Source: a virus. Taken from it: 64,000 nt of DNA. Positions 1,380-30,360 of the stretch are shown here, in pieces. The number at the start of each line of letters is the position of its first letter. Position 1 is the stretch's first letter. The notes beneath the pieces are model-generated. The model did no database searches, had not been told where the DNA came from, and was given only the letters and a program-made list of their open reading frames with translations. The position numbers were made by a program, and so were the translations under genes. Location: positions 1 through 64,000 of the IMG/VR virus record IMGVR_UViG_3300042946_000615; one strand, 5' to 3'.

Positions 1380-1400
1380 TTTTACCTCTAATTTGGGCTA

Positions 1401-1433: not shown

Positions 1434-1440
1434 AATTTGA

Positions 1441-3570: not shown

Positions 3571-3616
3571 ATTTTGCTCTTTATTGTTTTTATACCCTTA
3601 AAATTATCTAATAAGA

Positions 3617-3625
3617 AAATACACC
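3617..3625 (-). promoter_or_regulatory. Candidate late promoter motif (GGTGTATTT)
   Basis: Lies immediately after the stop of the upstream gene (3627) and 46 nt before the ATG at 3570, in the intergenic gap. It matches the shared motif [AG]GTGTAT[AT][AT]. Confidence 0.45.
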
Positions 3626-3626
3626 C

Positions 3627-4538: not shown

Positions 4539-4543
4539 ATTTA

Positions 4544-10500: not shown

Positions 10501-11010
10501 GGATTGATTATCTTTTTTGATGCATAAGGAGCCGTCTCGACTTAGTAGTTTAAATTCAATAATGAGATTATCAGCTTGTGATACTGGGGGCAAAGTGACA
10601 TTAACATCTTGTGCTGAGTCAACAACATATAATGCGCTTACTGGATCTAGGCGACAATCTTTATCAATAACAACTGTATTATTTAATCCCTTATCAAATG
10701 AACTCTGATTAGCAAAAATAAAAAACTCATTACCTGAGTTGGGGAAATCATTAAATTTATTACCATTAGAAGATTTAATTATTTGTTTTCTTTTAACCAA
10801 AATAATACCATCAACAACTATTACCTCTCCAACTCCAGCTTCATATATTTGCTTACTATTATTTCTAGCTATATACGGTATGTCATAACCAATATGATGA
10901 TTTTCTAATAAGCTAAAATTATTAATTTCAGATAAAGGTTGTATATATCCGTCTTTATTAAGAAGAAATTTAAATCCTATATTATCAAAAACTCTAATTA
11001 AGTTACTCAT
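7540..11010 (-). CDS. Tail fibre protein with permuted FGE/C-type-lectin-like fold
   Basis: 1156 residues; its ATG overlaps the tape-measure stop (ATGA), so the two are translationally coupled. The N-terminal half has fibre-type segments (GRIGLNIPTGS, ITLFHKPIA, SQINLAAKNS). Residues about 600-670 repeat the SVTKGGYL/ISIRP/NFEVYG module of the next gene. Residues about 676-800 carry the second half of a formylglycine-generating-enzyme (FGE)-sulfatase fold (GTYDQNGNAAEW, GGSY, VGFRLASS). Residues about 815-990 carry its first half (YRISKYEITNSQYCKFLNAV, NKPVVFVSY, ISAIRFINWVNNG, KAAYYEP). The reversed order suggests circular permutation. In phages this fold usually serves as a receptor-binding scaffold, not as an enzyme. 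Confidence 0.85.
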   Translation of the reverse strand: MSNLIRVFDNIGFKFLLNKDGYIQPLSEINNFSLLENHHIGYDIPYIARNNSKQIYEAGVGEVIVVDGIILVKRKQIIKSSNGNKFNDFPNSGNEFFIFANQSSFDKGLNNTVVIDKDCRLDPVSALYVVDSAQDVNVTLPPVSQADNLIIEFKLLSRDGSLCIKKDNQSIACTLSSSNNYVRLASTRQDWVVLNSAPPEKIQAQSTNGDPDTFSILSDQINTSDIYWDAPSKRVFIGGNSESLADTIIPTSGLYPFIVNNLNYSSDFLVYGSGTKDRNFFFAYDGRIGLNIPTGSRPLTLFHIVNTGCQQGIRLENRSQCYPANITLFHKPIADIPNDTKISQINLAAKNSVGVEKNYGRIEARALVVASGSEKGAVDIVVISGGSEIKTLNSNTDSTTLGYSNQKLVLTNGGSSVLSNSNANISVDTNAVVVTAPSITLNSVGISSTGTIIANIRTDNITIPNISPSSILTVNPSGKVVAGSVSLTDGGSLRISVPGNKLLSTTSNGSITGIYSLDDYFLTEQSIVWDKFDNRTASICLRQVTFSSPLSSTEFTLGDQIALSSSGSTYYRYVTEIDLSGDNINGLLIDEPLSNADITSVDVYSVTKGGYLTIQTSVPDGIINDSSSNILSIRPSKDTVFNTGKKDINFEVYGTNEEPALLIKANTGRVSVPSGKYYSFATRRNDIFPIVVLSGNGSGISNGYSSANYYYDNTTDRNLFSGVLSSVGSNGTPSFYGTYDQNGNAAEWIEKPNQIEFSDSEEYAAGGSYLTTSVSGLKGMELLPRSGCFESVGFRLASSYGVTDLSTVTNNVSGLQLSFSLVGNTANIPDGDGLNIKLGSSTIKQVIPRLGLVNTSYRISKYEITNSQYCKFLNAVAKNNDNYNLYNSKMSSEKSGGILRISDQGYVYSTKPNMDNKPVVFVSYISAIRFINWVNNGAAATVLDTSVDATINNGAYRVNAIGNDSFILRKLSTAKYWLPDLHQWHKAAYYEPIDAPSMAGSSAVAVNSSIPKLLASGTDLTTGQQSQVFANLTVSGWLYVDHLVIGDGSIASSPLSFTNLSDNTTTTTTPPVGGQTTDTASTPTSSLTSLYTNKGSIISISSVSCVGSGCDFDGKPLRLGTDGADLCVDDPADPKDPTEIPWWCDNKNNGPGWFIL

Positions 11011-14000
11011 TTAATTGATTTTCCCATTATGGAAGTTGTGTCAGGACCAAATATGCCGCTATCTAATTGACCTGGACCCTTGTTTATTTTGTTAAATGCG
11101 TTGTTTAGCTGGTTATTTGTTTGTTGTTCCATTGATGGACCCAGTGTAGAAAGGACATTGTTGGCTGCTTCAGCACCGTTGAATCTGTGTTCGCTTGTAA
11201 CGTTTCCGGTAAGTTTTATACTATCTGGTAAACTTACAGTACTAAGTTTATCAGCATATGATCCCAAGTTTGTTGTGGAGCTCTTTAATCCGTCAACTAA
11301 TGATTGTGATTGTGATCCGAAATTATCAATAAATCCGGTCATATTTTGATTTAATTGATTAATTTGAGATATCTTATCTTCCAAAGAACTAGACATTGAC
11401 TGTACTATCTTATTTAAAGCAGACTCTATGTCTCCAATGTTAGAACTATTATTAGATACACCAGGGGCTTGTTTGATAGCATTCGAAAGTTGTTGTCCTC
11501 CATCGGCATAATATTTGGGTGCAACAACTCCACCATTGGCCAAATAATTAACAATTCCACCTCTATTAAAGTGGCCACTATTAATAGCATTAAGGAGAGG
11601 CATATGCTTTTGGCTAGATTCTCTATTGACTACAAATTCTCCAGGAGTCAACATGGCTGGCACATTATCTGTACCAGAAGCTGCTTGAGCTAATGCTCCA
11701 TTATTAGCATAAATTAATCCCCCAGTATTATGATGACTTGCTTCATGTCTTTTGTTTGGATCACTAGTTACTTTTTGTACAAGTTCTGCTTTATGAAAAG
11801 GTTCAATAGTGCTTTTAGCAATTGTATGACCCGTGTGCTCACCCAAATGAGTATATTTATTTCTTAGTGTTGGCATTCCAAGATCATAAACGCTTTTAAT
11901 ATTAGAAGGCCTATTGCTAGCCAAAGCGCCAGCATCATGAATAGCTACTGTTGATGTCATGGTTTCTCTAGCCACACTACCTCCTCCCAAAGGAACCTCA
12001 ATAGTTGGAACCATATCAGGATCAAATATTTTGCTCGTAGGATTTTTTGAGACTTGAATTCCAAAGTCTTTTATTACAGCTTGTGATGCTAGTTTTGGAT
12101 CCAGACCCTTACTCGTAAGTCTAGTAGTTTCAGCATTAATAATAGTGCTTGGCTCTAGAGTTCCCATAGCTGCTTGCTTTACCATATTAGGATCAGCAGA
12201 TAGCGTGGGACTCTTCTCAACCATTTGTCGTACCGTACTAGCAGAGTCTTTTGCACTTCCAAGCGTTGCTGTAGCATTATCTAATGCTCCTGGTACCATA
12301 TCAGCTGTCATTACCTGTGCTGCTTTAGAACCAACTTGTTGAGCATTAGGAAGTGCATATCTGCTAACAGCAGCTCCAACATCAGCTGATTTTTCTCCTG
12401 TTAATGCGTAACTACCTGGCCCGCTATTTCCTGGCCAAAAGAACTTGCCATTACTCTCCGTGGCTCTCCAAACATCTGGACCTAATACTTCTATTGGTTT
12501 GCCTGTGGCAGTGTCGATTGCTGCTTCCACCATAGGAGATACTCCAGCTTGTCCTCCTGATAGTGTTCGGCTTCCTGCTATACCTTCTCCGTGTCTCCAC
12601 CATTCCGCAGTTTCTGCTGCTGCGCCAGGAGCAACAGGAGCTGGTCTAACTGAGCTTAAAACAGAATTACCTTTTGAAGCAATCTGAGCTTCAGCATGCA
12701 TTTTTCCTGCTGCTGTAGTAAAATTAGCGATATCCTCTGCGGTTTGTGTTCCGTGAGTAAAAGGGTCTCTACGGGCATAACTAAGAGTTTCTGCTCCTTG
12801 TATTCCCAAATCTGTAACCTTACCAGCTGTTTTGGCTGCCAAAGGAATAGGATCAGCAGCTAAATTAAATGCACCTTCTCCAACTATTGGAGCAAGACGT
12901 TGAACTGTTCCAGCAGCAGTTCCAAACTCATCTGTAACTTGCGCCACTTGACTATCCATAATCTCATTAGCAGCAGCAGTGGCTTCTGCTCTTTGTTTTT
13001 CATAAACTCCTCCAGATAAATAATCTAGCCCTAGTCCTTGTCCAGCCATAGCTCCGCCAGCTGCTATATTTGCTGCGCCTAAATCTCCCGTTTGTTGACC
13101 GCTTTTAGATAATCCACCAAAAAATCCATCATCGCTAGCACCTAAACCTTGTCCAATATCTCCAACCATCATACCAGCACCACCAGCGGCTATTTGCATA
13201 GCTCCATAACCGGACTTACCAATACCTCCTAATACTTGCATTGGTGGAAGTTCTGCTACAGTATGTAGAGCGTGTGGTATGTCTTGTTGAACTTGCTGTA
13301 AAGCTAATTGATTAGCGCTATTTGCTGCCATTTCATTAGCAAGATCTCCTTGTGCTCTTGCTATCTCCATATCATTAATATTAGCATAATCATTATTTGA
13401 TGATATACCCATCATATCATTTACATTATTTAGCATAGCTTGTCCAGCTGCGGCATCATAAGCGCTAATTTGTGGACTTTGTTGTGGCTCAAGTCTCATA
13501 TCCTTAAATGGGTCATTAGCTGGATCTGCTTGTGTGATAGGACGAATATCTGGTGCTTTTTGTTCATCATCTGTTCTTCCGCCTGTAGCTAAATATTTTA
13601 CTGGATTTTCTCGCTTATATTGAAGAATATAGTCCACTCCTTTGTCCATCCATGCTTTTTCATCATCAGAAATAGGCATAGGCTTCGGTTTCAGGGGCAG
13701 ATAACCGGGACCGTCGTAAATAGTAGAACTGGGACCGTCTGGGAAAAAAATGTCTTGCATTGCCTTTTTTTGTTGTATAGTATTTCTCTTAATTCCTTCA
13801 ATAAACCATCTAGTTTGTGCAAGTTCATTTTCCTTAGCCGCCCATTCCTCAGGTGGTGGATTTCTAATGTCATATGGCTTGCCATATACTCGACTCTTAT
13901 CAGGAGCTTTACGCTTGGTTTTTTTATTAGTTTTCGTCTTACCTCCTTTACTTAAATAATTTATCTCACCTCCTTTACTTTTGTTAATAGCATGTAAAAG

Positions 14001-17000
14001 TCCCAAATTCTCCTTTGTTGATTTTGCATTAACAACAAACTCGCCAGGAGTTAGCATAGCAGGAACAGTATCAGTACCCTTTGGTGAAAAATCAATTAAT
14101 TGTCCATTTTCAGCATATATCAATCCTCCACTAGCTCTTCTGGCTGGTTTTTTAGTCTTGGTTTTTTCTTTTTGAGGAGATGTTACAGCTTTTACTCCTG
14201 ACGATATGAGCTGAGCACCTCCAGCAAGAACCGCTCCCTTTTTTATAAGATCTGTTGTTGATGATTTGGTGTCTGGAGCAGATGGTAATGGGGTCGTGGG
14301 ATCTTTATTTAATAAGCTATTATATTTACTTAACTCTTTTACATAGCTAGGATTATCTAATGGTTTCTGACCCAAAGATCTTGCAACAGCTGCTTCTTCT
14401 TGAACTCTCGCTAGCGCATTATTAACGGCTACATCTTGTGGTACTTGTGCTTTAGTACCTCGAATATCCATTCTGGCTTGTGTAAATTCGTCCATTGCTG
14501 AGATTCTTGGCCCGGCGCCTTCGGCTAATACTCTGAATTTTTTAGGTAGTTTTGATATAACTCCTTTTGTTAATAAGTTTTGATCGTCTAATATCCCTAA
14601 TATTCTGGATACTGCATGACTTTGTTCATGTAAAGCAGCAAATGTGTCTGTTGGACTTCTTAGTACTGTTGTGCCAGTGACAGATCCTGGGGCGTCTGGT
14701 CTAAAGTAACCTCTACGATTTAATGCTGGATTAATACTAGTAGGTGTCGCCTCGGCTAATTGTTGAATTCTTTTTGCGACTACTGCTTCTCCCTTGGGAG
14801 TTAATCTTTGTGGACTGCTATAGCTTGTTGTTCCTGGCTTTAAGTCGAGCATTTCTGGCGCAAGAGCTTTGGCTGCTCTTGCGTTTAGTGTTGTGGCATC
14901 ACCTCCTCCTGTTCCGAATTCTGTTCCTCTCATTGCTCCTTTCTCTATTGCTGAGCTAGCCTTTGCAATAACTGAATCTTTTCCTCTTTTAACTTCTTTG
15001 CCAATATTTTGCCATAGTCTCGCCTCTTCTGCGTCATTAAGCTTTTCAGTTATATTATATCTGGATTCGTCTAAAGCTTGTTTCATATCTTTATCTATTG
15101 CTGATTCTGCTTTAGTTTGTTCTGTTGTCATTTGTCTTTGCGATTTTTGTCCACCAAGAATACCTTGTCCTCTACCACTGAGTTGTTCAGCAGTTCTGGC
15201 GCTATTTGCCATAGAAGCTATTCCTGCCGTTATCTGAATAAGATCAACAGCATCTTGTGGAGTGGATTCTCCCTTAATAACTCTTCCAGCAATATCAGGA
15301 ACTTTTCTAAGAGATGCTCCAGCCGTTACTACTCCAACAGGAGTAAGCATACTAGCAGCAGCAACTCCAACAGCTGTTATATCTTCTGGTTCAGATGTTC
15401 TTAAATAGTTTGTTCCATCGGCAAATAAAACATTACCATTTTTATCAGAATACTGTATAGGACCATGTTTCTGGATCATTTCTTCTAAATCTTGTTCTTT
15501 TTGGATTTTATTCAAGGTTTGAATAGAAGATGCTCCGGTTCCTCCTTGGGCAAAAATTACAGGCGGAACACCACCACTATCTCTCCATAAAGTATCTTTT
15601 GTCTTAGACTCTAAAGAAGCAAACATTTCTGCGTCCGTTAGTGGACCGGCCAACATAGGATCCACACCAAGTGCCACAGCATCTTCTTTAGTTAGTTTAG
15701 CTTGTGTTTTAGTATCTTGAGATCTATCTCTAGAAGCTTCGAATCTGTTTCTAGCTGATAATCTAGCAACATTTTTTCCGTCTGCACTAATTTCCAGACC
15801 AGCTGTGTGTCTTTCAGATCCGTCAAGTTTAAAGCCTGTTACATAGTCCACTAGTCCTGCCATAAAATTAGAAACCGCCTCGGCTCTTTCTTTAACTCTT
15901 TTTGTTCTGTCTGAGCCTATCATTTCTGGCGGCAATGTAGCATCGAATACTTCTGAACCAAATAACTTGGGTTTATCGGCACCGTATTTTTTAAATAAGT
16001 CTCTAGCTTTTTTAGCTTCAAAATAATCTTCAGCATTTTTATAAGACTCACGAGCCCAGCGCTCTCCGTCTGGCTTATTAACACCTCTGCCAAGTCCTAT
16101 TGGATTTAACCCAGCACTGGCCCTGCCAGTAGAACCAAACTCAACCTGAGCATGTCTTAATTGCTGTAGTCGTTTCTCTCTTTCGTTATCGCTTATGCCT
16201 TCTTCTTGAGAATGTTGTCTATATACGTCTATAATTTTTTTGCCTTCATCTATGGCAAATTGTACTTTTCTTGCAGACTCTTCTGCTGTTCCTGCCCTAG
16301 AAGAAGTTGCTTGCTGAGCAACAACCGTTGCTTGTGCTTCTTTATTAGCTGTTGACTGAGTTACGGAAGGTGCCAAAGGCTGCTGTGTCTGAACAGGTTG
16401 TGATTTTGTTGTATTAACCGGTGACGTTCCGGAAGATGTATTAAGTGGTTTGCCATCTTTATCCAGACCCATTACATTTAGTTTCACTTGAGCAATCTGT
16501 CTAACTATTGCTGCTTCTCCTCTAGGATCATTAGCCAAAGTCACATAATGCTGTGGTTCCATTTTGCTGTAATCTATATCTAATAGTTGGTCGCTAATTG
16601 TTCCATCAATATGTGGATATCCAGCATTAGTGGGTTTTACAGGAGTAGTCGGTACGGTCATTCCTGATGGTGTTGTTTTATCCGCAAGTAAGTCTGGCCA
16701 AGATGGAGATTTAGCAATAACATTATTCACATAATCTTTGATTTGACTTGCGTATCTAGGATTAGATGGTGATACAACTTGTGGATCTGTTAAAGATGAT
16801 GATGTTGTGATTGTTTCTGAAGCTAGGGTGGGTTTTGGTAATTGGCCATTAATCGCTTCAGCCCTTGCTCTGCTTTTGTATGAGGGGTTTCTATAATCAT
16901 ATTCATTTTCGCCCTTATCATAATCGTGGCGACTAATATTTCCGTTTTTGTCTAAGCGGAATGGCTCGGTATTATTGGCCATCCACTGCTTCATTATTGT

Positions 17001-23000: not shown

Positions 23001-26000
23001 GTTTAATCCACTGTCTTGAAACATATTACCAAGGATTGAATTTGCTCCTTTATTACCAACTGCTGATGCCGATATGAGTACTGGTACTACTTCTAAGCGA
23101 CCTAAATCATACTGTGACTCTCCTATTGATCCAAGTATTCCGTTAGATAGATTAGAAAGATTTTTTTTTGTCTTTTTCTTAACTGATTCTATAGCTAATA
23201 AAGAAGTGTCTGGTCCATAGGGTGAATTAGATTTACCTGGTATCGGAAAGAAGTGCTCAGGTTTATAATCCTTTGGTCCGGCCCACTCAGCATTAGCTGG
23301 ATCATTATACCATTTAATTATATCGTCTTTATATTTTTCTGCTGATACTTGTAATTTATCTATAATCTCTGGATGATTATCATATAAATATCCTTGAATA
23401 TCATGAAAAGTTTCGTGAGCAAGAACTCCTTTGTGTTTTCCTCCAGCTGTCTTAATAATATCTTCGCCGCCTTGAAATAGTAGATTCTCATCTATAAAAG
23501 TTTTTAATGCACGATACTCATCGTCTGGTATAGTTTTTTTATTTTTTTCTAACCTATGTCTCATGGTTTTATAATGCAAACCACCCTGATAAAATGCTCC
23601 TGTTTGTTCTTCTGGTGGAACTTGTTCACTCTTGCCTAAAAGTATTGACATCATTGTGCTTCTACTTTTTTCAGCAAGAGTTCTTGGTGGTATAAATTCA
23701 ATAGGTTCTGCTTGTCCTGATGGCATTTTAAGATAGCCGTCAGACGTTAACATTTCTTTTGGTAAAATACTTGCAAGTATTTGTTTATACTCTTCTTCAA
23801 CTTTTCCACCTTTAGCAAACTTATAATGTATCGCTTCGTGCCCCTGACCCTTCAATCGCGTTATTGTTTCTAAATTATCGTCAATCATCTTTTGATAACC
23901 GGTAATCTTCTTATTTTGAGGACCGTCTGATCCTCTTATTTTTGATACGGGAATAGGCAGCCCTAATCTTGACAAGGTATCAGCCAATATTCCTGCTTGA
24001 TTCTGATTTCTGGCTGAAAGTATACTAATGTTATCAACAAGAGAAGGTTCCTGTTTGATTGCTTCGGATAAGTGTTGTCCTAGTGGGGTTAACTTTCCTT
24101 TTTTTAGCATCTGCTCAACTAGTGGAATATTATCTTTTTGAGATAAGTCTAATGAACCGTCTGGTTTTCTAATTTCTCCACCGGTAACTAGAGTATCATC
24201 AAAATCAAAAACCATTTCTTTAAATGGGCCGGTCGAGTTATTGTTTGGGAATATTTCTCCATACTTTTTAAGTAGTCCTCCGCCCGATAATTTCTGAACC
24301 ATCTTATCGTTCTTTGGTTCTGGGATTCCATATTGTGCTCTAAAATATCTTTGAAATTCTTCAACAGCCTTGCCTCTACTACCACTGTCTATTGTTCTTT
24401 TAACCTCTGTGGGAATATCAGGATCGATACCAAATATTTTTGCTGCTTTAGGTCCGATGCCCATTGGGAAGTCTATTGGACGAGTTCTTAAAGCGTCGTC
24501 TAATATTGTGGCATCTGCTGATCCAAAAATTTGTTCTAGTAAAGCGCCTTCAATATTGCCCTGACCTAATGTTTCTCTTTGTTTTTTACTTAATTTTTTT
24601 GGAGTAATTCCAAGAAGCTTAGATGCTCCACCGACAATTTCTTCTGTTTGACCACTAAGATAATCAATGACATTTTGATACTGTGTTGGTAATCCTCTCT
24701 GAACTATTGATGCGTCTATTGATCTTTCTTGGCCAGATGGATCGATTCCAAGATTCCAAGTTTCTGGCCCTAGTAATCCAGTATATCCTAATGGATTTAA
24801 TCCAACCAACCCTAACTGTTTGGAAGATAACACAGCATTAGTTGTATCTTCTAGGGCTGTAGCCCTTTGAATTCCTTGTGATTCATTAAATTTATCTATT
24901 AGGTAGTCTCTTGTTGCAGTATAGTAGGCGAGTTTATCTGCTTTTGTTTCTGGTCTAAAAGCAGAATTCCAATATTTTAGTTTTCCACCATCAGCAGTAT
25001 CTCTTACTGTTTTTCCTGAGAATGGACCAAAACTAGCGTCTGTCGGCAATCTTGATGTTCCAAATCTTTTTAGAATCTCTGATCCTTGTGCTGGTAATAT
25101 TCCGGAGGACTTTTTGACCTGGGTAGTCTTTTCTACATTTTTTAGTATTGCAGCTTCTAGTCCAGAAGGCATCGCTGTTGGAACTCCACCAAACTCACCA
25201 CTCATCTGTTCTGAAAGTTGTGCTGCTATAGTCTCTCTTGTTATGTCTGATGGCTGTGCAGATACGGAGGATTTTCTTGATGGATCTAGTCCATAAATTT
25301 CTGGATATTTAGCAGATAGTGCTCTGATAATGTTGAATGCTCTATAACCAAAGGCTCCTCTGGACGCTCTATCTCTTTGACTTCTGATGTCTTGAATTTG
25401 ACCAGCTATTTCTGGAGCATTTTGCTTTAGCTTAGCATTGACATTACCATAGGGGCCACCAGGGGCAGATGCTAGTAATCCACTAATCTCCGCATTAGAT
25501 TTTGCTTTGTCTTGATCAACAAATTTTTGTATTTCTTCAATCAGCATGGGAACCATCGTGCTACGATTTCTTAACTGTGCTCTGTTACCCATGAGAATCG
25601 ATGCTACTTCAGGATTAAGAAAACTAGTTAATGTTTTATCATCACCAGAAAATAACGCGTCTCTAACTTTAGTGGCACTGATATCTTCTATTCTTGGAAT
25701 ATCTTTAACATTCATTCCTGCTCTCTCATATTTACCAAGAACACCTTCTTCTTTTCCTGATGTTATAGCCATAGCTCCTTTTAATTTAGCAAATCTTCTT
25801 CTGTCTCCGCTTCCAGCAATTTCCATAAATTTTGACAAACCGCCAGCAGGCTGGTCTTGGGTACTAATCTGCGCATTTCCAAAGTTTATTTTACTTAATA
25901 GAGCTCTAAAATCTGCTGGGAAAATACCATATCGTGCAGCGTGTTCTATTCCTTCTTTACCGGCGATCATAGGAAGATCCGGAGCAACGCTCACAACAAT

Positions 26001-29000
26001 ATCTTCTAAAGAAGAGTTTGGATTTTTAGCTAACATATTATCCAATAGAGTATCTAGTGCTCCACGATGACCCCTGGTAGGAGGAGCAAAGCCTCCTGTA
26101 TAAAATCCACCAGCTTGAACTATTTCTGGCAATTCATTTTCTCTTTTACGTCTTAAGCCAAAACTGTCTTTTTTTCTTCCTAGTACAGTTGCCCTTTTGC
26201 CTAACTCATCTCTTAATATAGTCTCTTCTAAACCAAAATCAGAATTAGCACCGACTGTAGTACCTGGTTTACGACCGTATAATCCTTCTCCAGTAAGATC
26301 TCTACTACTTCTATTTGACCTTACTCTGTCTTGTTCATCTCTACTATTAGAGCTTAATATATATGCTCTATCAACATCTTTTAAATAAGAATCTAATTTA
26401 GTTTGACTAGCTGTTGAAGTTAGTACAAAAACCTCATTAACTTTTTCTATATCCTCAGGTGTTAATATTTGAGAGCGAGTTGTTTTTCTCAAAGTAGCAT
26501 CATCATTAGCTCCCTTACCAGTTGCCACACTACTTTTTCCACTTCCAGCAGCCCCAGCAATAGCCATGAATTTTGATAGTGATTTATTTTTTCGTGCTTT
26601 AGCAGCCAACTCTCCGAGTCTTGTTGTGTAATCACTAACATCAGTGATTCCAAGCTTTTCCATTGCTGGTCTAACCACTGTTGCATTAGCTGCGTCTCTT
26701 AGGACATCTGTATCAATTATACCAATATTCCTTAAAACTTGTCCACCGCGAGCAAATTTTTGAATTTTTCCGCCTCTAGCAAGTTCTAATTTGCCAGACT
26801 CATTCCATTTTCTTCCTGTTGTCAAAGAAGAATCCATAGTAAATCCGCTTGCTAAGTACCGACCAAATCCACCACCAACCTTTATCTTACTCGTATCTTT
26901 AAAATCAGCTATCTGTGTTTGTAGTGCTTTTGTACCTTCTTCGGCAGCTTTAGATGCTGTCATATCGTTTGAGACATAATAATCTGATGGAATGACGAAT
27001 CCGCTTGGTCCTTGTTTTGGTTTTCTTTTATTTTTATTTTTTTGTATATCTAATAAATTTACAGCTTTGGCTTCAGATACTCTACTGGTTTTATTACCAA
27101 TTTCATAGGTATCAAAATCAGCAATTCTAAAACTAGCAGTAAAGGGTTTTCCTGTGGGGGTAACTGTAGCAGTAAATGTATCTCCATCCGTGGCCTTTTG
27201 ATCTCCGTCTATACTTGCTACTTCTGCTGCTCCTCCTTTAGCAAATTTTTTCCTTTTACCTGCTCTTCCGCCACTCCTAATACTTCCACCACCACCATAC
27301 TTATTTATATTATGAAGATTATTTGATCCAATAGTTTCAACAGCTTTCTTTCTTATAACAAATTCTCCTGGCATTAACATAGCAGGAACAGTATCTCTAT
27401 TTCCTGATCCTGGAACAACGCCACCTCTGGCAAACTTACGAACAGGGCCGCCATCTGCAAATGGTTCTGATCTACCAGATCCCTTTTTATTATCTGGTCC
27501 TCCTCTGAACCCCTTATTAAATCCACCAGCAAATTGAGTTAATGCTTTTGCTCCTTTAAAAGCAAGCATAACGCTTAATGCAGGAAGTAGAGTTTTGCTA
27601 GCATCTGCAACCTTTATTAAAGCTCCAGATAATGACAACGCTCCTTTAACCAGCGTTTGGAATCCTTGACTTTGGCCTAGTTCTCTGAATAGTGCAAAAA
27701 ATTGTTCTCTAACTTTGCTAATTTGATTAGCCAAAGAGAGTTGTGCTTTTACAGCATCTCTGGCTAGCGAACCTTGTCCTTGTTGGGCCACTGCCAAAGC
27801 CTCTTGAGCTACTGAAAATTGTTGGATTAACGGAATAACCTTACCGATTTGTCGGAATCCACCAAGTTCTTCAACAATTCTAGAAAATTTTAAGTCTCTT
27901 GGATCAATAGAATTTAATCCTTCGCTTAATAACTGTACCGCTTTATAGGCTCCAACGAATTTACCCTGAGCATCAGTTAAATTAACACCAAACTCCTTTA
28001 GAGCATTAATTGTATCTCCTCGCTGCACGCGAGTAAAAATAGTTCTTAATCCAGTAGCAATAGTTTCTGCACTTTCACGAGTAGTTGCTCTAACGCTAGT
28101 AAACACAGCAATAAATTCATTAAGAGCATCAGTTCCGGTACTAACTCCTTTACTGGCTGTTGCAAACACTCCACCGGTACGCTGAATGGCTGCTATAATA
28201 TCACTAGCTTCAACAGCGAATTTAGCAGCAACGGTATTTACTGAGCCGAGTGCTGATTCTAATTCACCAGCGCCTATGCCGAACTGTCTCATTAAAGCGA
28301 TACTGCCTTCTACCGTTTCGTTCATACTGTCGAATGAAGGGGCTAAACTACTTAATGCTAAAGCTTTTAATGATCGTTCTGTGTCTTTTGCGCTCAATCC
28401 TGCCTGAGCTAAAGTTACAGCTACTGTTGTTAACTCTTTTGAACTAACGCCCAAAGAAGTGGATAAATCAGTAATTCTTGATTGTAATTGTGTTAGTCCT
28501 TTTAGTGACTGACCAGTAACTTGTTGTAATCTAACTAATTCCTTATCATATTCTATAAAAGCCTGAACACCCTTACTAATACTATTAGTCAAACCATAAA
28601 TAACACTGGTTACGGTAGCAAATGCAGTAAATCTTCTAACTGCTAATCCGGCCTGCTTACCGAAATCTTCCATCTCGTTAGTAACGCTAGAAAATGATGA
28701 TTTTGCTTTGGTTGCATTGTTATTTAAAGTGGATACTGATTTACTAATATTATTAACTTGTTGTGGAATATTATTAAGCTTAACAGAATTAACCGATTGA
28801 CCAAGCATCTTTATTGCAGAGGCGGCTGATGATGCGGACTTATTAGTTGCTGATAGTGTAGAATTTAATTTTTGTAATGCTGATGTTAGTGCTGTTACGT
28901 TTTTTGTTGCTGTTGGATCTAACTTAAAATTAACAGTAGCATTAACATTGCCAAGATCTTTCTTTATCTGAGCAGCTATCTGTTTAACATTTGTCGGCCC

Positions 29001-29042
29001 AACCAAATTTAGTTGAGCTGTTAGATTAAATCCTTTAGACAT
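11007..29042 (-). CDS. Giant tape measure protein with embedded enzyme-like modules
   Basis: 6011 residues, far longer than usual tape measures (about 700-2500). It starts with ATG at 29042 behind AGGATAA. Residues 140-420 resemble the TP901-type tape-measure core (IYGLTNSISKGVQAFIEYDK, LAQAGLSAKDTERSLKALA). Between 530 and 2290 lies a string of enzyme-like modules. Residues 2300-3600 are long helices with membrane segments near 2650-2740. Residues 3660-3705 hold two EF-hands. A second HExxH module is near 4805, and a glycine-rich hydrophobic stretch near 5260. Five D-T-x-P-A-x-L/M-x-P-G-E-F-V motifs (prolines 558, 2286, 3622, 4999, 5800) and repeated K-F-A-K/R-G-G linkers separate modules. 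The usual role is setting tail length and being ejected into the host; the cargo role is inferred. Confidence 0.93.
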   Translation of the reverse strand: MSKGFNLTAQLNLVGPTNVKQIAAQIKKDLGNVNATVNFKLDPTATKNVTALTSALQKLNSTLSATNKSASSAASAIKMLGQSVNSVKLNNIPQQVNNISKSVSTLNNNATKAKSSFSSVTNEMEDFGKQAGLAVRRFTAFATVTSVIYGLTNSISKGVQAFIEYDKELVRLQQVTGQSLKGLTQLQSRITDLSTSLGVSSKELTTVAVTLAQAGLSAKDTERSLKALALSSLAPSFDSMNETVEGSIALMRQFGIGAGELESALGSVNTVAAKFAVEASDIIAAIQRTGGVFATASKGVSTGTDALNEFIAVFTSVRATTRESAETIATGLRTIFTRVQRGDTINALKEFGVNLTDAQGKFVGAYKAVQLLSEGLNSIDPRDLKFSRIVEELGGFRQIGKVIPLIQQFSVAQEALAVAQQGQGSLARDAVKAQLSLANQISKVREQFFALFRELGQSQGFQTLVKGALSLSGALIKVADASKTLLPALSVMLAFKGAKALTQFAGGFNKGFRGGPDNKKGSGRSEPFADGGPVRKFARGGVVPGSGNRDTVPAMLMPGEFVIRKKAVETIGSNNLHNINKYGGGGSIRSGGRAGKRKKFAKGGAAEVASIDGDQKATDGDTFTATVTPTGKPFTASFRIADFDTYEIGNKTSRVSEAKAVNLLDIQKNKNKRKPKQGPSGFVIPSDYYVSNDMTASKAAEEGTKALQTQIADFKDTSKIKVGGGFGRYLASGFTMDSSLTTGRKWNESGKLELARGGKIQKFARGGQVLRNIGIIDTDVLRDAANATVVRPAMEKLGITDVSDYTTRLGELAAKARKNKSLSKFMAIAGAAGSGKSSVATGKGANDDATLRKTTRSQILTPEDIEKVNEVFVLTSTASQTKLDSYLKDVDRAYILSSNSRDEQDRVRSNRSSRDLTGEGLYGRKPGTTVGANSDFGLEETILRDELGKRATVLGRKKDSFGLRRKRENELPEIVQAGGFYTGGFAPPTRGHRGALDTLLDNMLAKNPNSSLEDIVVSVAPDLPMIAGKEGIEHAARYGIFPADFRALLSKINFGNAQISTQDQPAGGLSKFMEIAGSGDRRRFAKLKGAMAITSGKEEGVLGKYERAGMNVKDIPRIEDISATKVRDALFSGDDKTLTSFLNPEVASILMGNRAQLRNRSTMVPMLIEEIQKFVDQDKAKSNAEISGLLASAPGGPYGNVNAKLKQNAPEIAGQIQDIRSQRDRASRGAFGYRAFNIIRALSAKYPEIYGLDPSRKSSVSAQPSDITRETIAAQLSEQMSGEFGGVPTAMPSGLEAAILKNVEKTTQVKKSSGILPAQGSEILKRFGTSRLPTDASFGPFSGKTVRDTADGGKLKYWNSAFRPETKADKLAYYTATRDYLIDKFNESQGIQRATALEDTTNAVLSSKQLGLVGLNPLGYTGLLGPETWNLGIDPSGQERSIDASIVQRGLPTQYQNVIDYLSGQTEEIVGGASKLLGITPKKLSKKQRETLGQGNIEGALLEQIFGSADATILDDALRTRPIDFPMGIGPKAAKIFGIDPDIPTEVKRTIDSGSRGKAVEEFQRYFRAQYGIPEPKNDKMVQKLSGGGLLKKYGEIFPNNNSTGPFKEMVFDFDDTLVTGGEIRKPDGSLDLSQKDNIPLVEQMLKKGKLTPLGQHLSEAIKQEPSLVDNISILSARNQNQAGILADTLSRLGLPIPVSKIRGSDGPQNKKITGYQKMIDDNLETITRLKGQGHEAIHYKFAKGGKVEEEYKQILASILPKEMLTSDGYLKMPSGQAEPIEFIPPRTLAEKSRSTMMSILLGKSEQVPPEEQTGAFYQGGLHYKTMRHRLEKNKKTIPDDEYRALKTFIDENLLFQGGEDIIKTAGGKHKGVLAHETFHDIQGYLYDNHPEIIDKLQVSAEKYKDDIIKWYNDPANAEWAGPKDYKPEHFFPIPGKSNSPYGPDTSLLAIESVKKKTKKNLSNLSNGILGSIGESQYDLGRLEVVPVLISASAVGNKGANSILGNMFQDSGLNPEFYKTLPKKYKAGGVIRDIWHGTTTGKDDSVLESFKKYGAKSDVSHGFGQGHGFYVYSDPTSAMLRAMELEGGANFLTAADPNGRPMALKFTELLDGKNWDLDYEFQNADIVNFIHANYDRVKEAIAKSKGVDLGTNLKDFSLDKKYDEYLDTTDNTMMRKMGISFKDQGKDAEKLLANNNSGDARSGEVLSSLVKSLMHSDPDFYEEFENSFFNNLKPKQGLKYVGKDPLKPVLAQIFTRQKNINDTGWITEKFAKGGSPKDTVPALLTPGEFVVNKDAAQKIGYSNLHKLNKADKVQGYNKGGVVGTFQKLAGGGFADPNSFIRKFGQWFTEQPKNNQVKRFDRRPDIIGRASTQINKDVPKVLEDLIEGINKLGFSAAQSATVIKKLRNSSEVSYKEVEKALSGDLDKLKTAGAGFDTIIRAEEALYQIRRQGKRDVDLKRNLEGAFSQRGSATAQFMGGKMMMGDINQGSAAAQEMIEKEAQYIISGATQKLRASGKDVDLSKLTDKAYKIAASKVSGVSQKSFSDFDISGKDIKEYINESKRDRKTLTELDKEYAAQKMAELKRSSQFASVGSKQQQRMIKELEKETRREISVRRSLINDLASRTGQKGVGAIDMMDFNNSPILKYIKSLSAPQVLGGASIATGLVAGQGKNIGRLLYGQQNNDAKIKSAETSAAIESSGIIISTGLATAAEILANVPGKAGVIAASIVAIGSTLYGLAEYFSDISGSQAEARRQQQSENRAVQLDAAMERLNRSAKEYETNVGNTDLRNNLSDALKDVNNISVSDAQFQLREAKLDFGRQSPIAGMTPSKATGLQYINETLGNMIASVMPTFTGLGASRETMGAQEMARINAEMASKNKETGAIAQQAIMSALSQGATREDIISGDKYTNERAGLLMSDVKGVAAFNAAMASASSAVGGRELTEGELDEVLKKVTKDYYEQGNVILDTIIKANDLAKAMEAADRAGRQLAVSFDRMIDSINQSINRIQYESQQRTKYAQSRIKGLTGESGPPEINIPELNILENPQAYTPQDFALAVGKAADLIGGKEGKNIESMINFSKSLPDVMTKAIADRLSTEASLTKEDASAQALSVGQGIINSSGLDNETKEKLNSQLEAYVKNASEKISDEGLANNRKVALEIFLDQIRTSSSALGEGLARKATDAAKAMLEFRQNGLNDFAKSLQQSSDYIRQSTELRRKADKIMYKANIDTREIFRDVGESYNEAKGQTLNEVAQMTGGITDPVAIAQAIRQESDRINDPNTGLVKQRDDALLNKDFNDVIQFTQDIQDSSDKIKNYNDALDKLANSTNMYERALQEAKNVAETQKDRQSFVEKLLTNTPEEADNLNQAFIRLQRNLSGGLNSPWNQRDARKAFNEALFKTGSMREAYRAGNTVLANQRKETLGLMQDPGFKAIIKGQIQNQRATAGQGLLSEADLDNMFRQQEGKMMQQMAIESGFANNPVVMQAIQTKMNPESEPMAQAAANQVLEAAGLQKAATEEQAKLREVQAMELNVFAMDNLTVAIIDLKNQLADSFSRNDTIEGRDSSGAKTIQLNLGTTDLGEQYQNQAAITASRGGLIYAAEGQMIDFKPKGTDTIPAMLSPGEFVINAKSTAQNLPLLEAINNGYANGGKVKYFKDGGLASLFRGFDKDQNSILSENEFLDYFSDFDLNKDKAIDINEFLEYGNKVQNRAKLLRLLNKAGTFHNKRYDQLKNKADKRTFSEESEYKNYNEILSSQLKSDTLRAEEIRQQKNSFRRLNLNIKGKAKRTPEEEIEYQNLREEQRVLNPEIRRKQESIRRMNLNMKGKAKRTQGEEEEYQSLRQKWTKENPIEASKAKKITERQARLNENNRYIYQRQDQYRRERLGLDPAQEKEPSTPQSTAVGAKASTQVAAAQSRTEDNRRKQLWLKGSKGRTPEEESEYTKLRSLYEERKGKSKTKKADSAADPNAAQEAAIEDANARVTGLMNRFASSMGPIQDANDYVNRWTLAATALGPTIMKQWMANNTEPFRLDKNGNISRHDYDKGENEYDYRNPSYKSRARAEAINGQLPKPTLASETITTSSSLTDPQVVSPSNPRYASQIKDYVNNVIAKSPSWPDLLADKTTPSGMTVPTTPVKPTNAGYPHIDGTISDQLLDIDYSKMEPQHYVTLANDPRGEAAIVRQIAQVKLNVMGLDKDGKPLNTSSGTSPVNTTKSQPVQTQQPLAPSVTQSTANKEAQATVVAQQATSSRAGTAEESARKVQFAIDEGKKIIDVYRQHSQEEGISDNEREKRLQQLRHAQVEFGSTGRASAGLNPIGLGRGVNKPDGERWARESYKNAEDYFEAKKARDLFKKYGADKPKLFGSEVFDATLPPEMIGSDRTKRVKERAEAVSNFMAGLVDYVTGFKLDGSERHTAGLEISADGKNVARLSARNRFEASRDRSQDTKTQAKLTKEDAVALGVDPMLAGPLTDAEMFASLESKTKDTLWRDSGGVPPVIFAQGGTGASSIQTLNKIQKEQDLEEMIQKHGPIQYSDKNGNVLFADGTNYLRTSEPEDITAVGVAAASMLTPVGVVTAGASLRKVPDIAGRVIKGESTPQDAVDLIQITAGIASMANSARTAEQLSGRGQGILGGQKSQRQMTTEQTKAESAIDKDMKQALDESRYNITEKLNDAEEARLWQNIGKEVKRGKDSVIAKASSAIEKGAMRGTEFGTGGGDATTLNARAAKALAPEMLDLKPGTTSYSSPQRLTPKGEAVVAKRIQQLAEATPTSINPALNRRGYFRPDAPGSVTGTTVLRSPTDTFAALHEQSHAVSRILGILDDQNLLTKGVISKLPKKFRVLAEGAGPRISAMDEFTQARMDIRGTKAQVPQDVAVNNALARVQEEAAVARSLGQKPLDNPSYVKELSKYNSLLNKDPTTPLPSAPDTKSSTTDLIKKGAVLAGGAQLISSGVKAVTSPQKEKTKTKKPARRASGGLIYAENGQLIDFSPKGTDTVPAMLTPGEFVVNAKSTKENLGLLHAINKSKGGEINYLSKGGKTKTNKKTKRKAPDKSRVYGKPYDIRNPPPEEWAAKENELAQTRWFIEGIKRNTIQQKKAMQDIFFPDGPSSTIYDGPGYLPLKPKPMPISDDEKAWMDKGVDYILQYKRENPVKYLATGGRTDDEQKAPDIRPITQADPANDPFKDMRLEPQQSPQISAYDAAAGQAMLNNVNDMMGISSNNDYANINDMEIARAQGDLANEMAANSANQLALQQVQQDIPHALHTVAELPPMQVLGGIGKSGYGAMQIAAGGAGMMVGDIGQGLGASDDGFFGGLSKSGQQTGDLGAANIAAGGAMAGQGLGLDYLSGGVYEKQRAEATAAANEIMDSQVAQVTDEFGTAAGTVQRLAPIVGEGAFNLAADPIPLAAKTAGKVTDLGIQGAETLSYARRDPFTHGTQTAEDIANFTTAAGKMHAEAQIASKGNSVLSSVRPAPVAPGAAAETAEWWRHGEGIAGSRTLSGGQAGVSPMVEAAIDTATGKPIEVLGPDVWRATESNGKFFWPGNSGPGSYALTGEKSADVGAAVSRYALPNAQQVGSKAAQVMTADMVPGALDNATATLGSAKDSASTVRQMVEKSPTLSADPNMVKQAAMGTLEPSTIINAETTRLTSKGLDPKLASQAVIKDFGIQVSKNPTSKIFDPDMVPTIEVPLGGGSVARETMTSTVAIHDAGALASNRPSNIKSVYDLGMPTLRNKYTHLGEHTGHTIAKSTIEPFHKAELVQKVTSDPNKRHEASHHNTGGLIYANNGALAQAASGTDNVPAMLTPGEFVVNRESSQKHMPLLNAINSGHFNRGGIVNYLANGGVVAPKYYADGGQQLSNAIKQAPGVSNNSSNIGDIESALNKIVQSMSSSLEDKISQINQLNQNMTGFIDNFGSQSQSLVDGLKSSTTNLGSYADKLSTVSLPDSIKLTGNVTSEHRFNGAEAANNVLSTLGPSMEQQTNNQLNNAFNKINKGPGQLDSGIFGPDTTSIMGKSIK
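14373..14855 (-). other. Tape measure module: second zincin-like domain (HEQSH)
   Basis: Residues about 4730-4890. TFAALHEQSHAVSRIL contains HExxH at 4805-4809 within a helix; the following EEAAVARS helix could hold a third ligand. It is unrelated by eye to the HETFH module upstream except for the motif. Confidence 0.5.
17208..17855 (-). repeat. Tape measure: four RTPEEE-type helical repeats
   Basis: Residues about 3730-3945 hold four related units with the core K-R-T-x-x-E-E-x-E-Y-x-x-L (RTFSEESEYKNY, RTPEEEIEYQNL, RTQGEEEEYQSL, RTPEEESEYTKL). The middle two share an NLNxKGKAKRT lead-in. The spacing is irregular (about 47, 44 and 106 residues). Confidence 0.75.
17928..18065 (-). other. Tape measure module: paired EF-hands
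   Basis: Residues about 3660-3705. There are two 12-residue loops: DKDQNSILSENE from Asp 3668 and DLNKDKAIDINE from Asp 3688. Both have Asp at loop positions 1, Asp or Asn at 3 and Asp, Asn or Ser around 5, and Glu at 12, the calcium-binding pattern. Helices flank each loop. Confidence 0.75.
20823..21095 (-). other. Tape measure hydrophobic/membrane segments
   Basis: Residues about 2650-2740 contain long uncharged stretches (SGIIISTGLATAAEILANV, GVIAASIVAIGSTLYGLAEY). Membrane-spanning segments in tape measures are thought to help form the DNA channel through the host inner membrane. Confidence 0.6.
22248..22955 (-). other. Tape measure module: ADP-ribosyltransferase-like domain
   Basis: Residues about 2030-2265. 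DIWHGT has His 2036, and GQGHGFYVYSDPTSAMLRAM has Tyr 2070 followed by a helix. This is the H...Y pattern of PARP/DUF3990-like ART folds (HGT, then GxGFY-x-T/S-x3-A). The final catalytic Glu is not identified. The module ends at TEKFAKGG. Confidence 0.55.
22983..23795 (-). other. Tape measure module: zincin-like metallopeptidase (HETFH)
   Basis: Residues about 1750-2020. AHETFHDIQGYL contains HExxH at 1876-1880 inside a predicted helix, preceded by a GGKHKGVL strand. The surrounding segment has the size of a small zincin. The third ligand is not assigned. Zincins are frequent in polyvalent phage proteins. Confidence 0.6.
23838..24230 (-). other. Tape measure module: HAD-like phosphatase domain
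   Basis: Residues about 1605-1735. VFDFDDTLV gives the DxDxT nucleophile motif (Asp 1613, Asp 1615). ILSAR gives motif II (Ser 1676), KITGYQKMI may hold the motif III Lys, and IDDN at 1720-1723 gives the acidic motif IV. All four HAD motifs appear in order in a compact, capless domain ending at a K-F-A-K-G-G linker. Confidence 0.7.
24333..24905 (-). other. Tape measure module: possible PD-(D/E)XK nuclease-like domain
   Basis: Residues about 1380-1570. GNIEGALLEQIFG places a Glu at 1498; IDFP has Asp 1524; TEVKRT has Glu 1546 and Lys 1548. The E...D...ExK spacing is typical of the PD-(D/E)XK fold. The call rests on motif order only and is moderate. Confidence 0.45.
25623..26120 (-). other. 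Tape measure module: nucleotidylyltransferase-like domain
   Basis: Residues about 975-1140. GGFAPPTRGH at 983-992 matches the GxFxPxxxGH nucleotide-binding signature (TRGH in place of HxGH), and ISATKVRDAL at 1121-1130 matches the ISxTxxR motif of the same superfamily (nicotinamide mononucleotide or pantetheine-phosphate adenylyltransferases). Both key motifs are present at the expected distance. Confidence 0.7.
26253..26750 (-). other. Tape measure module: P-loop kinase-like domain
   Basis: Residues about 765-930. A classic Walker A is at 830-837 (GAAGSGKS), preceded by a beta strand (FMAIA) and followed about 45 residues later by VFVLTST and RAYILSS strands. The neighbouring nucleotidylyltransferase-like module suggests a two-step nucleotide or cofactor kinase/transferase, as in NadR-type fusions. 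The substrate is unknown. Confidence 0.65.
26808..27230 (-). other. Tape measure module: staphylococcal-nuclease-like domain
   Basis: Residues about 605-745, bounded by K-F-A-K-G-G and K-F-A-R-G-G linkers. DGDT at 619-622, FRIADFDTYE, a following helix with EAKAVNLL, and GRYLA at 727-731 match the order of conserved blocks in SNase/thermonuclease folds (Ca-binding Asp, Arg, Asp/Glu, then G-R-x-L-A). Catalytic competence cannot be judged. Confidence 0.65.
27783..28625 (-). other. Tape measure module: TP901-like core
   Basis: Residues about 140-420. Helical repeats such as TVAVTLAQAGLSAKDTERSL and GSIALMRQFGIGAGELESAL match the common core of phage minor tail/tape-measure proteins. This module identifies the gene. 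Confidence 0.8.
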
Positions 29043-29140: not shown

Positions 29141-30058
29141 TCAGGCTGTTGCTGGCTGTTCAACTTTCGGTTCTGCCACTGGTGCTGGTGCTGGTACTTC
29201 AACAGCTGGCTGACTTTCTTTGGTTTCTGAACTAGCAGCTTTTGGTTCATCTTTTTTGTCTTCTTCTAAAATAATTGGGTTTCCACTATCATCTAAGAAG
29301 GGTTGAGGATCAACGAGATAATCACCGTCTGAATTTACCTTATTGCCATACTTATCTACGAAGTTACCTTCTTCGTCTATAAATCTACCGCTCTCGTCGA
29401 TCAACCTACCTTCTGCATCAATTAATCTGCCTTTTTTATCAACTAAACGTAATTTTTCATCAACAAATTTATATTTCTTTAAAAACTTGTTTTCTGGTAA
29501 ATTACTCTCGTAGTCATTATCCAAACCATAAAGCATATTAGCCAAATTTTGTGCTCCTAATAATCCAACAGAATCTGTTGACCTATTAAGGTAGTCTTCC
29601 ATATTGTTGAAATATGGCTGTTTAGTATCATTATACACCACACAAACACCAACTAAATAATTAAATCTAGCATTATCAGCCTGTCCTTCAGCACTATGAT
29701 TGTCTAAGGAGGTTCTAACACTGATCAAATCTCTTATTTCATCTCTAACGGTCTTCATTTGAATAGCAAGGTCTTTAGCCTCATTTAAACTAAATCCACC
29801 CTTAGCTAGTCTCTTCTCTCCATCTAGCAATTCTTTTTGCAGAGTGGTGAACTTGGCCTGTTTCTCATCATTCCACAACCCTTGATCTTCAAGAAGATCG
29901 TCTAGCTTAGCCCTTACCACGCTCTTGCTTTTAATAGCATCGGTGAAAGCCTGATTATAAACTTTTTGAGCTTCTCTTTGGTCGTTAAGCGATGGTGTCT
30001 TAACAAGAAATTCTTTTTCAACACCGTCGATAGTTGCCTTAAATGTTTTAGTCTTCAT
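29141..30058 (-). CDS. Putative tail assembly chaperone-like protein with 7-residue repeats
   Basis: 305 residues from the ATG at 30058, chosen because AAGGAG lies 5-6 nt upstream; an in-frame ATG at 30082 lacks such a leader. It directly precedes the tape measure, the normal place for tail assembly chaperones. The middle is helical and charged. Residues about 203-250 are seven-residue tandem repeats with the pattern R-L-I-D-x-x-G (RLVDKKG, RLIDAEG, RLIDESG, RFIDEEG, NFVDKYG). The C-terminus is rich in Pro, Ala and Glu (VEVPAPAPVAEPKVE). No family match was certain. Confidence 0.6.
   Translation of the reverse strand: MKTKTFKATIDGVEKEFLVKTPSLNDQREAQKVYNQAFTDAIKSKSVVRAKLDDLLEDQGLWNDEKQAKFTTLQKELLDGEKRLAKGGFSLNEAKDLAIQMKTVRDEIRDLISVRTSLDNHSAEGQADNARFNYLVGVCVVYNDTKQPYFNNMEDYLNRSTDSVGLLGAQNLANMLYGLDNDYESNLPENKFLKKYKFVDEKLRLVDKKGRLIDAEGRLIDESGRFIDEEGNFVDKYGNKVNSDGDYLVDPQPFLDDSGNPIILEEDKKDEPKAASSETKESQPAVEVPAPAPVAEPKVEQPATA
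29300..29460 (-). repeat. Tandem 21-bp (7-residue) repeats
   Basis: In-frame repeats coding RLxDxxG units, six or seven in a row, decaying toward the C-terminal side (NKVNSDG, DYLVD). This is a possible extended beta or spacer segment in the chaperone-like protein. Confidence 0.7.
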
Positions 30059-30356
30059 AATTATCTCCTTGGTTATTATCAAAATTTATCTTGTAATTAT
30101 ATTTGTTGCTCATATTGCATTTGCTTTTATTTAAGAATTCACCAATATCTTCAACAGCTCCTCTAGCTTGTTTGTTACCATTGTTTAATATGCTATTTCT
30201 TGCATATTCCCACATATCGGCAAATTCGTCTCCTCTCTTAGACTCCTCTTCCCATAAGTGTCCAAATATGTTTTCAAATCTTGCTAGAGCACCTATCATT
30301 GTGGTTTGAAATCTCTTGTATACCTTATCTATTAATTCATTCTCTTCTTTTGTCAT
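30048..30356 (-). CDS. Small helical protein in tail chaperone region
   Basis: 102 residues, charged and helical: KRFQTTMIGALARFENIFGH, LWEEESKRGDEFADMWEYAR. It overlaps the start of the chaperone-like gene by 11 nt, which suggests coupled translation. It sits between two chaperone-like genes just before the tape measure. I recognise no domain with confidence. Confidence 0.65.
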   Translation of the reverse strand: MTKEENELIDKVYKRFQTTMIGALARFENIFGHLWEEESKRGDEFADMWEYARNSILNNGNKQARGAVEDIGEFLNKSKCNMSNKYNYKINFDNNQGDNYED

Positions 30357-30360
30357 GGTA

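What the first reader, a model, noticed from the sequence alone, without database searches (positions are those of the whole stretch)
11007..29042. A 6011-residue tape measure carrying a string of enzyme-like modules
One uninterrupted frame of 18 kb combines a TP901-like tape-measure core and membrane segments with at least seven apparent catalytic or binding modules. The usual tape measure contains at most a lysozyme or peptidase. Polyvalent proteins (described for phage and plasmid MuF/ART/zincin fusions) are known, but this number inside a tape measure looks exceptional. Since tape measures are ejected into the host, it may be an effector delivery vehicle.
Basis: partly seen in the sequence, partly recalled or inferred. 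Interest (0 to 1): 0.93.

Follow-up and report, generated by a model that had tools for sequence, protein, structure and literature searches.

The report
Giant cargo-carrying phage tape measure
This virus of bacteria makes one enormous tail protein that combines the usual tail-length ruler with interchangeable enzyme-like cassettes, and about fifty related viruses do the same with different cassettes, which suggests the ruler doubles as a vehicle for injecting enzymes into the host.

Summary
In detail: one uninterrupted 6011-residue frame on the minus strand (29042 to 11007) of a 71.7-kb IMG/VR phage record. It is not an assembly merger. Fifty relatives (51 proteins with the window's) have the same kind of gene, 1958 to 7794 residues.

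The protein is a shared tape-measure backbone (N-terminal core, middle region, C-terminus) interrupted by variable cargo. A repeated 'DTVPAMLTPGEFV' linker, five copies here, brackets the slots. Cargo in the window:
- well supported: a P-loop kinase-like domain with a HIGH-motif nucleotidyltransferase, a HAD phosphatase, an HExxH zincin;
- weaker: SNase-like, ADP-ribosyltransferase-like, PD-(D/E)XK-like, a second zincin.

Relatives with similar backbones carry different cassettes in the same slots. Some carry ADP-ribosyltransferase or SNase domains above Pfam cut-offs, inside the tape-measure frame.

Key new fact: the protein has no cysteine. Cargo across the family has 17 cysteines in 163,773 residues, against about 1,744 expected. 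Ordinary tape measures also lack cysteine, so the cargo appears to share the tape's constraint.

Best reading: a polyvalent tape measure that delivers effectors. Ejection and enzyme activity are inferred, not shown. The module count is exceptional for phages at large but normal in this clade.

The parts
11007..29042 (-). Giant tape-measure gene, 6011 aa, zero cysteines
   Evidence: one frame in 40 of 40 relatives
27243..29042 (-). N-terminal tape-measure core, aa 1-600
   Evidence: PF10145 E 1.6e-20; PHROG tape measures; covered in about 47-50 of 50 relatives
27288..27395 (-). Linker 1 (DTVPAMLMPGEFV), aa 550-585
   Evidence: same motif in cyanophage S-SM2
26778..27251 (-). SNase-like cargo module, aa 598-755 (DGDTF motif)
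   Evidence: alignment; SNase PF00565 over cut-off inside two relatives' tape measures, not in the window itself; moderate
26163..26750 (-). P-loop kinase-like domain, zeta-toxin-like fold, aa 765-960
   Evidence: Walker A conserved; AlphaFold pLDDT about 90; Foldseek to zeta toxin, prob 0.98; Pfam Zeta_toxin not matched
25308..26120 (-). HIGH-motif nucleotidyltransferase (NMNAT/NadM-like), aa 975-1245
   Evidence: TxGH and IS(G/A)TxxR motifs in 13 sequences; PDB profile hit 5llt 7.5e-5; Pfam CTP_transf_like in 5 of 13 and HIGH_NTase1_ass in 11 of 13 at E<=0.1; Foldseek NadM prob 0.99
24228..25055 (-). PD-(D/E)XK-like module, aa 1330-1605
   Evidence: NIEG..LE / IDFP / TEVK motif in 32 proteins, degenerate in several; inconclusive
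23718..24245 (-). HAD phosphatase module, aa 1600-1775
   Evidence: DxDxT, T/S-A-R, K, DD motifs over 18 sequences; found in 27 of 51 proteins; PHROG nucleotidase and polynucleotide kinase hits in relatives
22908..23720 (-). Zincin metallopeptidase-like module, aa 1775-2045 (LAHETFHD)
   Evidence: dN/dS 0.22 against L114 (dS near saturation)
22257..22949 (-). ADP-ribosyltransferase-like module, aa 2032-2262
   Evidence: HG[ST]xTG ... G[FL][YF]xY ... DLDYE conserved in 14 sequences; model pLDDT about 80; weak Foldseek to ART toxins, prob 0.75
22008..22235 (-). Linker 2, aa 2270-2345
   Evidence: low model confidence
18243..21995 (-). Middle backbone, aa 2350-3600
   Evidence: 36-42 of 50 relatives over aa 3000-3600; 12-19 over aa 2400-2950
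18063..18260 (-). Linker 3, aa 3595-3660
14133..18059 (-). Variable slot 2, aa 3661-4970, mostly unique to the window
   Evidence: no relatives over aa 3951-4700; a different stretch lies in the same slot in L083
17934..18059 (-). EF-hand/dockerin-like calcium loop, aa 3662-3703
   Evidence: PF13499 E 0.011, below the cut-off; clear EF-hands in a relative's cargo
14343..14705 (-). Second zincin-like motif (LHEQSHAV), aa 4780-4900
   Evidence: motif and context; no convincing relatives; weak
13938..14132 (-). Linker 4, aa 4971-5035
11769..13937 (-). Variable slot 3, aa 5036-5758, no relatives over most of it
11523..11723 (-). Linker 5, aa 5774-5840
11010..11522 (-). C-terminal backbone, aa 5841-6011
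   Evidence: about 28-49 of 50 relatives over aa 5800-5950
29141..31404 (-). Three small genes (347, 102 and about 305 aa) directly upstream, conserved in order in relatives
   Evidence: L175 shows the same order, with the first gene in pieces

Best explanation
It is a polyvalent tape measure. The backbone (core, middle, C-terminus, roughly 2,100 residues) serves tail assembly as in other phages. The variable stretches between the repeated linkers are effector-like cargo cassettes that are built into the same chain, packed with it, and ejected with it at infection. The enzymes then act in the host envelope or cytoplasm: nucleotide and NAD-type chemistry (kinase-like, nucleotidyltransferase, HAD, ART-like), nucleic acids (SNase-like), and proteolysis that may also release the modules (zincins). 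Cassettes are exchanged between phages, often at linker edges. Shown here: anatomy, homology, motif and fold evidence, purifying selection on modules, cassette exchange, cysteine avoidance. Inferred: packing in the tube, ejection, and the activities.
For: Core homology to tape measures and conserved gene order upstream. Fifty relatives share the backbone with variable cargo. Close backbones with different cargo: window/L083, L084/L085, L096/L114. Edges of replaced intervals lie within 75 aa of a linker in 45% of cases against 11% for random positions (pairs are not independent). Nucleotidyltransferase and kinase-like folds: confident model, PDB fold and profile hits. HAD motifs complete. ADPrib_exo_Tox over cut-off in 6 of 39 relatives, all seven matches inside the tape-measure frame, 0 of 14 control genomes. 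SNase over cut-off in 2 relatives, inside the frame. HExxH 30 seen against 0.23 expected. Kinase-nucleotidyltransferase dN/dS 0.15, core 0.13, same comparison. Cysteine: 0 of 6011; cargo 17 of 163,773 against about 1,744 expected; named enzyme modules 0. Tape measures of lambda, SPbeta, Perkons, S-SM2 and T4 also have 0 cysteines.
Against: No experiment shows the protein in virions or in host cells. Folded enzymes would not be expected to fit in a tail tube, so cargo would have to be unfolded or located elsewhere. Most modules of the window itself have no sequence-family hit, and Pfam Zeta_toxin and NCBIfam give none. The ART fold match is weak. Slots 2 and 3 remain largely unidentified. Tail type is unresolved: no sheath or gp25 was found. 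The set of control tape measures for cysteine is small (7).
Confidence: 0.62

Rival explanations
1. The cargo acts only during entry: peptidases and nucleotide or wall-active enzymes work in the envelope and periplasm to let DNA through, an enlarged version of the lysozyme or peptidase known in other tape measures, with no host take-over role.
For: Tape measures with cell-wall enzymes are established (TM4 motif cited in PMC12619734). Zincins are a widely scattered cargo motif. Zeta-type kinases act on wall precursors in polyvalent proteins (PMC5512222). Cysteine avoidance fits exposure to an oxidising periplasm.
Against: HAD, NMNAT-like nucleotidyltransferase and ART-like modules would need cytoplasmic substrates (NAD, nucleotides; from knowledge of those families). 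No lysozyme or other wall hydrolase was recognised by Pfam in the window or the sampled cargo.
Confidence: 0.2
2. The gene makes a polyprotein that is cut before or during assembly, and the cargo ends up as separate proteins, for example in the head, like T4 Alt.
For: Zincins may process the chain, as argued for polyvalent proteins (PMC5512222). Linker 2 is modelled with low confidence, as a flexible stretch would be.
Against: Cargo shows the same cysteine avoidance as tape measures, which free cytosolic or head proteins need not show. Many relatives have cargo but no HExxH motif.
Confidence: 0.12
3. The extra length is only ruler or filler; enzyme-like motifs are remnants without activity, and the size reflects a very long tail.
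For: Tape length follows tail length in general. Some modules have degenerate motifs (PD-(D/E)XK).
Against: Motif sets and dN/dS of 0.15 in the kinase-nucleotidyltransferase module show purifying selection. Lengths from 1958 to 7794 aa among related backbones would imply a fourfold range of tails. A ruler has no need of folded globular domains such as the one modelled.
Confidence: 0.05
4. Assembly or annotation artefact merging several genes.
For: None found.
Against: Same single-frame architecture in 40 of 40 related contigs, with a conserved gene order upstream.
Confidence: 0.01

Closest known systems
Phage tape measure proteins with an enzymatic domain (SPbeta YomI, TM4 Tmp)
   Same: YomI matches the same core; position in a tail operon; no cysteine in YomI (0 of 2285)
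   Different: One or two wall-active domains (from annotation and literature) against a series of diverse, mostly non-wall enzymes; no exchangeable slots described; YomI is 2.6 times shorter
Polyvalent proteins (Iyer et al. 2017, PMC5512222)
   Same: Many unrelated enzyme domains in one chain (ART, zeta-type kinase, metallopeptidases); predicted injection with DNA
   Different: That paper does not mention tape measures; here the scaffold is a tape measure and cassettes are bracketed by a repeated linker
Tape-measure-like effectors of contractile injection systems (Sle1 of Streptomyces, PMC13277306; Tme)
   Same: Tape-measure-related platform with diverse functional domains, packaged and ejected
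   Different: Bacterial nanomachines, not phage; one C-terminal functional domain rather than several slots
T4 Alt and other head-delivered effectors
   Same: ART-type enzyme entering with DNA
   Different: Separate protein carried in the head, not part of the tail ruler

Membership tests
Tape measure protein | PhageMin_Tail/TP901 core homology | tested here: met
   PF10145 E 1.6e-20, PHROG tape measures
Tape measure protein | Location in a tail/structural gene block with conserved neighbours | tested here: met
   Conserved trio upstream, adhesin-type genes downstream
Tape measure protein | Sets tail length, sits in the tube, is ejected | not testable with these tools
   needs virions
Tape measure protein | Cysteine avoidance (as seen in the controls here; not a textbook definition) | tested here: met
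   0 of 6011; five of seven control tape measures 0
Polyvalent protein (Iyer 2017) | Two or more enzymatic domains with disparate activities in one chain | tested here: met
   kinase-like, nucleotidyltransferase, HAD, zincin-like, by motif, profile and fold; activities not tested
Polyvalent protein (Iyer 2017) | Delivered into the host with DNA | not testable with these tools
   inferred only
HIGH nucleotidyltransferase | HxGH-type and ISxTxxR motifs, Rossmann-type fold | tested here: met
   TxGH/ISGTxxR, 5llt profile hit, NadM fold
HAD phosphatase | DxDxT, S/T, K, DD motif set | tested here: met
   PHROG hits in relatives; Pfam not matched; fold not modelled reliably
Zeta toxin kinase | Pfam Zeta_toxin profile match | tested here: not met
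   0 of 39 records; resemblance is by fold only
ADP-ribosyltransferase | ART fold with catalytic triad | tested here: inconclusive
   Conserved H, Y/F and E positions; weak fold match; clear PF03496 only in relatives
Zincin metallopeptidase | HExxH in helix with downstream ligand, zincin fold | tested here: inconclusive
   HExxH and context; fold not modelled; no PDB sequence hit
Staphylococcal nuclease | Pfam SNase match | tested here: inconclusive
   Not in the window, over cut-off in two relatives inside the frame
PD-(D/E)XK nuclease | Conserved E, D and E-x-K | tested here: inconclusive
   Present in most, degenerate in several

The most novel reading that the evidence does not exclude
Phages of a widespread aquatic clade, with no close cultured member in the collection searched, use the tail tape measure as a general effector-delivery chain: a ruler with linker-bracketed slots into which enzyme cassettes are exchanged, so that each virion injects a set of host-directed enzymes covalently tied to the ruler before any phage gene is expressed.
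Probability: 0.45. Interest if true: 0.92.

Novelty: new variant of a known kind. Interest (0 to 1): 0.8.

Why it matters
If cargo is delivered, tape measures are effector-delivery chains comparable to polymorphic toxins, and a large reservoir of unknown early-infection enzymes (about 72,000 non-redundant cargo residues from 50 proteins, few with Pfam hits) is open to study. It ties together phage tape measures, polyvalent proteins and tape-measure-like effectors of contractile injection systems. The lack of cysteine offers a possible marker for proteins that travel through tail tubes, and makes the question of how folded enzymes pass a tube directly testable.

Tried and rejected
Pfam, PHROGs and NCBIfam on the window protein found no enzyme family over its cut-off; module identity rests on relatives, motifs and folds. 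PDB profile searches for the HAD and ART modules gave nothing useful, nor did those for the two zincins.

In the first structure job the HAD part was misaligned by MAFFT (seen only after submission), so only aa 765-1284 of that model is trusted. Alignments A8, A9 and A10 were set aside for the same reason.

A programmed frameshift between the two genes upstream was considered and dropped: the 305-aa gene has its own AAGGAG site and ATG.

Contractile markers were sought and not found, so no claim is made on tail type. An apparent hit of the second zincin region to the cores of L032/L033 was judged too weak to use.

Identity with the 'moraphages' (PMC12619734), for which no tape measure was found, could not be tested. 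Parsimony change counts of modules on the backbone tree (kinNT 9, HAD 15, ART 4, SNase 4) were printed without shuffled controls and are used only as description.

Full report
Observation. The window is bases 1-64000 of a 71,662-base virus record. The first 600 residues hold a tape-measure core by Pfam PF10145 (E 1.6e-20) and by several PHROG tape-measure families. In cultured phages, tblastn over most of the protein (all but the last about 170 residues) found only this core, in SPbeta-type and other tape measures, and the repeated motif, in cyanophage S-SM2 and marine viruses; no cargo module was found.

Relatives. A search with the core found 116 related stretches in IMG/VR, 80 kept. All 40 records searched whole have it in one open frame of 3636-7795 codons. 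Fifty relatives' proteins were extracted (51 with the window's): 1958 to 7794 aa, median 4648, two of them running off the contig end. An assembly merger is therefore ruled out, and giant size is a trait of this clade.

Anatomy. Mapping relatives on the window protein gives a clear pattern. The core (aa 1-600), much of the middle (about 3000-3640) and the C-terminus (about 5750-5950) are shared by most relatives. Between them lie stretches shared by few or none. A repeated motif, DTVPAMLTPGEFV, sits at aa 550, 2278, 3614, 4991 and 5792, that is, at the edges of the slots; most relatives have 2 to 8 copies. Across the family the backbone plus linkers average about 1,550 aa and the rest 3,240 aa, with the rest varying from 793 to 6,264.

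Modules. (1) aa 765-1245: a P-loop domain and a HIGH nucleotidyltransferase, found together in 14 of 51 proteins, with conserved Walker A, TxGH and IS(G/A)TxxR motifs. The AlphaFold model is confident (about 90) over aa 765-1284. Foldseek gives NadM (prob 0.99) and the epsilon/zeta toxin kinase (0.98), although E-values are modest, about 0.01; a profile search gives nicotinate-nucleotide adenylyltransferase at 7.5e-5 covering both nucleotidyltransferase motifs. Pfam Zeta_toxin does not match any of the 39 records, so the kinase is zeta-like by fold only. (2) aa 1600-1775: a HAD phosphatase with the full motif set, in 27 of 51 proteins; relatives match nucleotidase and polynucleotide-kinase PHROGs. 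(3) aa 1775-2045: HExxH zincin-like, found in two other contigs. Over the family HExxH occurs 30 times against 0.23 expected, mostly in zincin context and in several distinct types. (4) aa 2032-2262: ART-like by motifs; the model (pLDDT about 80) matches ART toxins only weakly. A related domain is a stand-alone 436-aa ORF in a 358-kb phage contig. Independent support: six relatives carry ADPrib_exo_Tox over the Pfam cut-off, all seven matches inside the tape-measure frame. (5) Weaker: SNase-like, PD-(D/E)XK-like, a second zincin, and an EF-hand-like loop. Most of slots 2 and 3 is unidentified.

Selection and exchange. Against L105 the kinase-nucleotidyltransferase module has dN/dS 0.15, close to the core's 0.13; several other comparisons are near saturation in dS and are only rough. 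On a tree of the core the window groups with L083 (82% identity over the aligned core), yet the two differ completely over aa 3660-4940 and 5040-5760, with homology resuming at linkers. L096 and L114 have nearly identical cores over the tree region but different cargo, the zincin module among it; L084 and L085 carry different versions of the kinase-nucleotidyltransferase. Over 410 pairs, 45% of the edges of replaced intervals lie within 75 aa of a linker, against 11% for random positions. The pairs are not independent, so this is a description rather than a test.

Cysteine. The window protein has no cysteine; about 50-64 would be expected from other ORFs. Across the family 41 of 51 proteins have none; cargo has 17 in 163,773 residues against about 1,744 expected; the named enzyme modules have none. 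Other ORFs upstream in the same contigs have 1.06%, and all those with zero cysteine are at most 348 aa. Tape measures of lambda, SPbeta, Perkons, S-SM2 and T4 have none, and two others have one and two. This is a property of tape measures in this small control set, and cargo shares it. The simplest reading is that cargo takes the same path as the tape: inside the tube and through the envelope. This is inference; a shared cysteine-poor composition could have other causes. Histidine and tryptophan are also about threefold depleted.

Mechanism. Steps shown: one chain, conserved tape backbone, exchangeable cargo, folds or motifs of several enzymes, selection on them. Steps inferred: packing with the tape, ejection, folding in the host, activity, and possible self-processing by zincins. 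How a folded enzyme passes a tube is unknown; [quoted passage not shown]

Known kinds. Polyvalent proteins combine ART, zeta-type kinase and metallopeptidase domains and are predicted to be injected; the paper does not mention tape measures (PMC5512222). Tape-measure-related effectors with diverse domains are known from bacterial contractile injection systems (PMC13277306). Literature searches in the held library found no giant multi-enzyme tape measure; the library is partial. The verdict is a new variant of a known kind, of high interest.

Noticed in passing
11007-29042: No cysteine in 6011 residues; near-total cysteine avoidance in the whole family and in most control tape measures, with tryptophan and histidine also depleted.
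   Followed up: yes
L136:3923-5233: Stand-alone 436-aa ORF with the ART-like domain in a 358-kb phage contig.
   Followed up: partly
7540-11010: The gene overlapping the tape-measure stop encodes a 1156-aa protein with an FGE-sulfatase-type domain match; the next gene downstream has fibronectin domains. Possibly receptor-binding proteins.
   Followed up: no
39660-41501: Laminin-G/lectin-type domains in a 613-aa protein that PHROGs call a baseplate wedge.
   Followed up: no
L112 (record G021): Largest relative, 7794 aa, has two ADP-ribosyltransferase domains in one tape measure and eight linkers.
   Followed up: partly
L175: A 5.3-kb contig with the same gene order, binned into an alphaproteobacterial MAG named Lanier; weak hint on the host.
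   Followed up: no
L082 (record 60001-71662): Next to the terminase gene lie ORFs that by eye look like a sugar-nucleotide dehydratase/epimerase and a small HNH-type nuclease.
   Followed up: no
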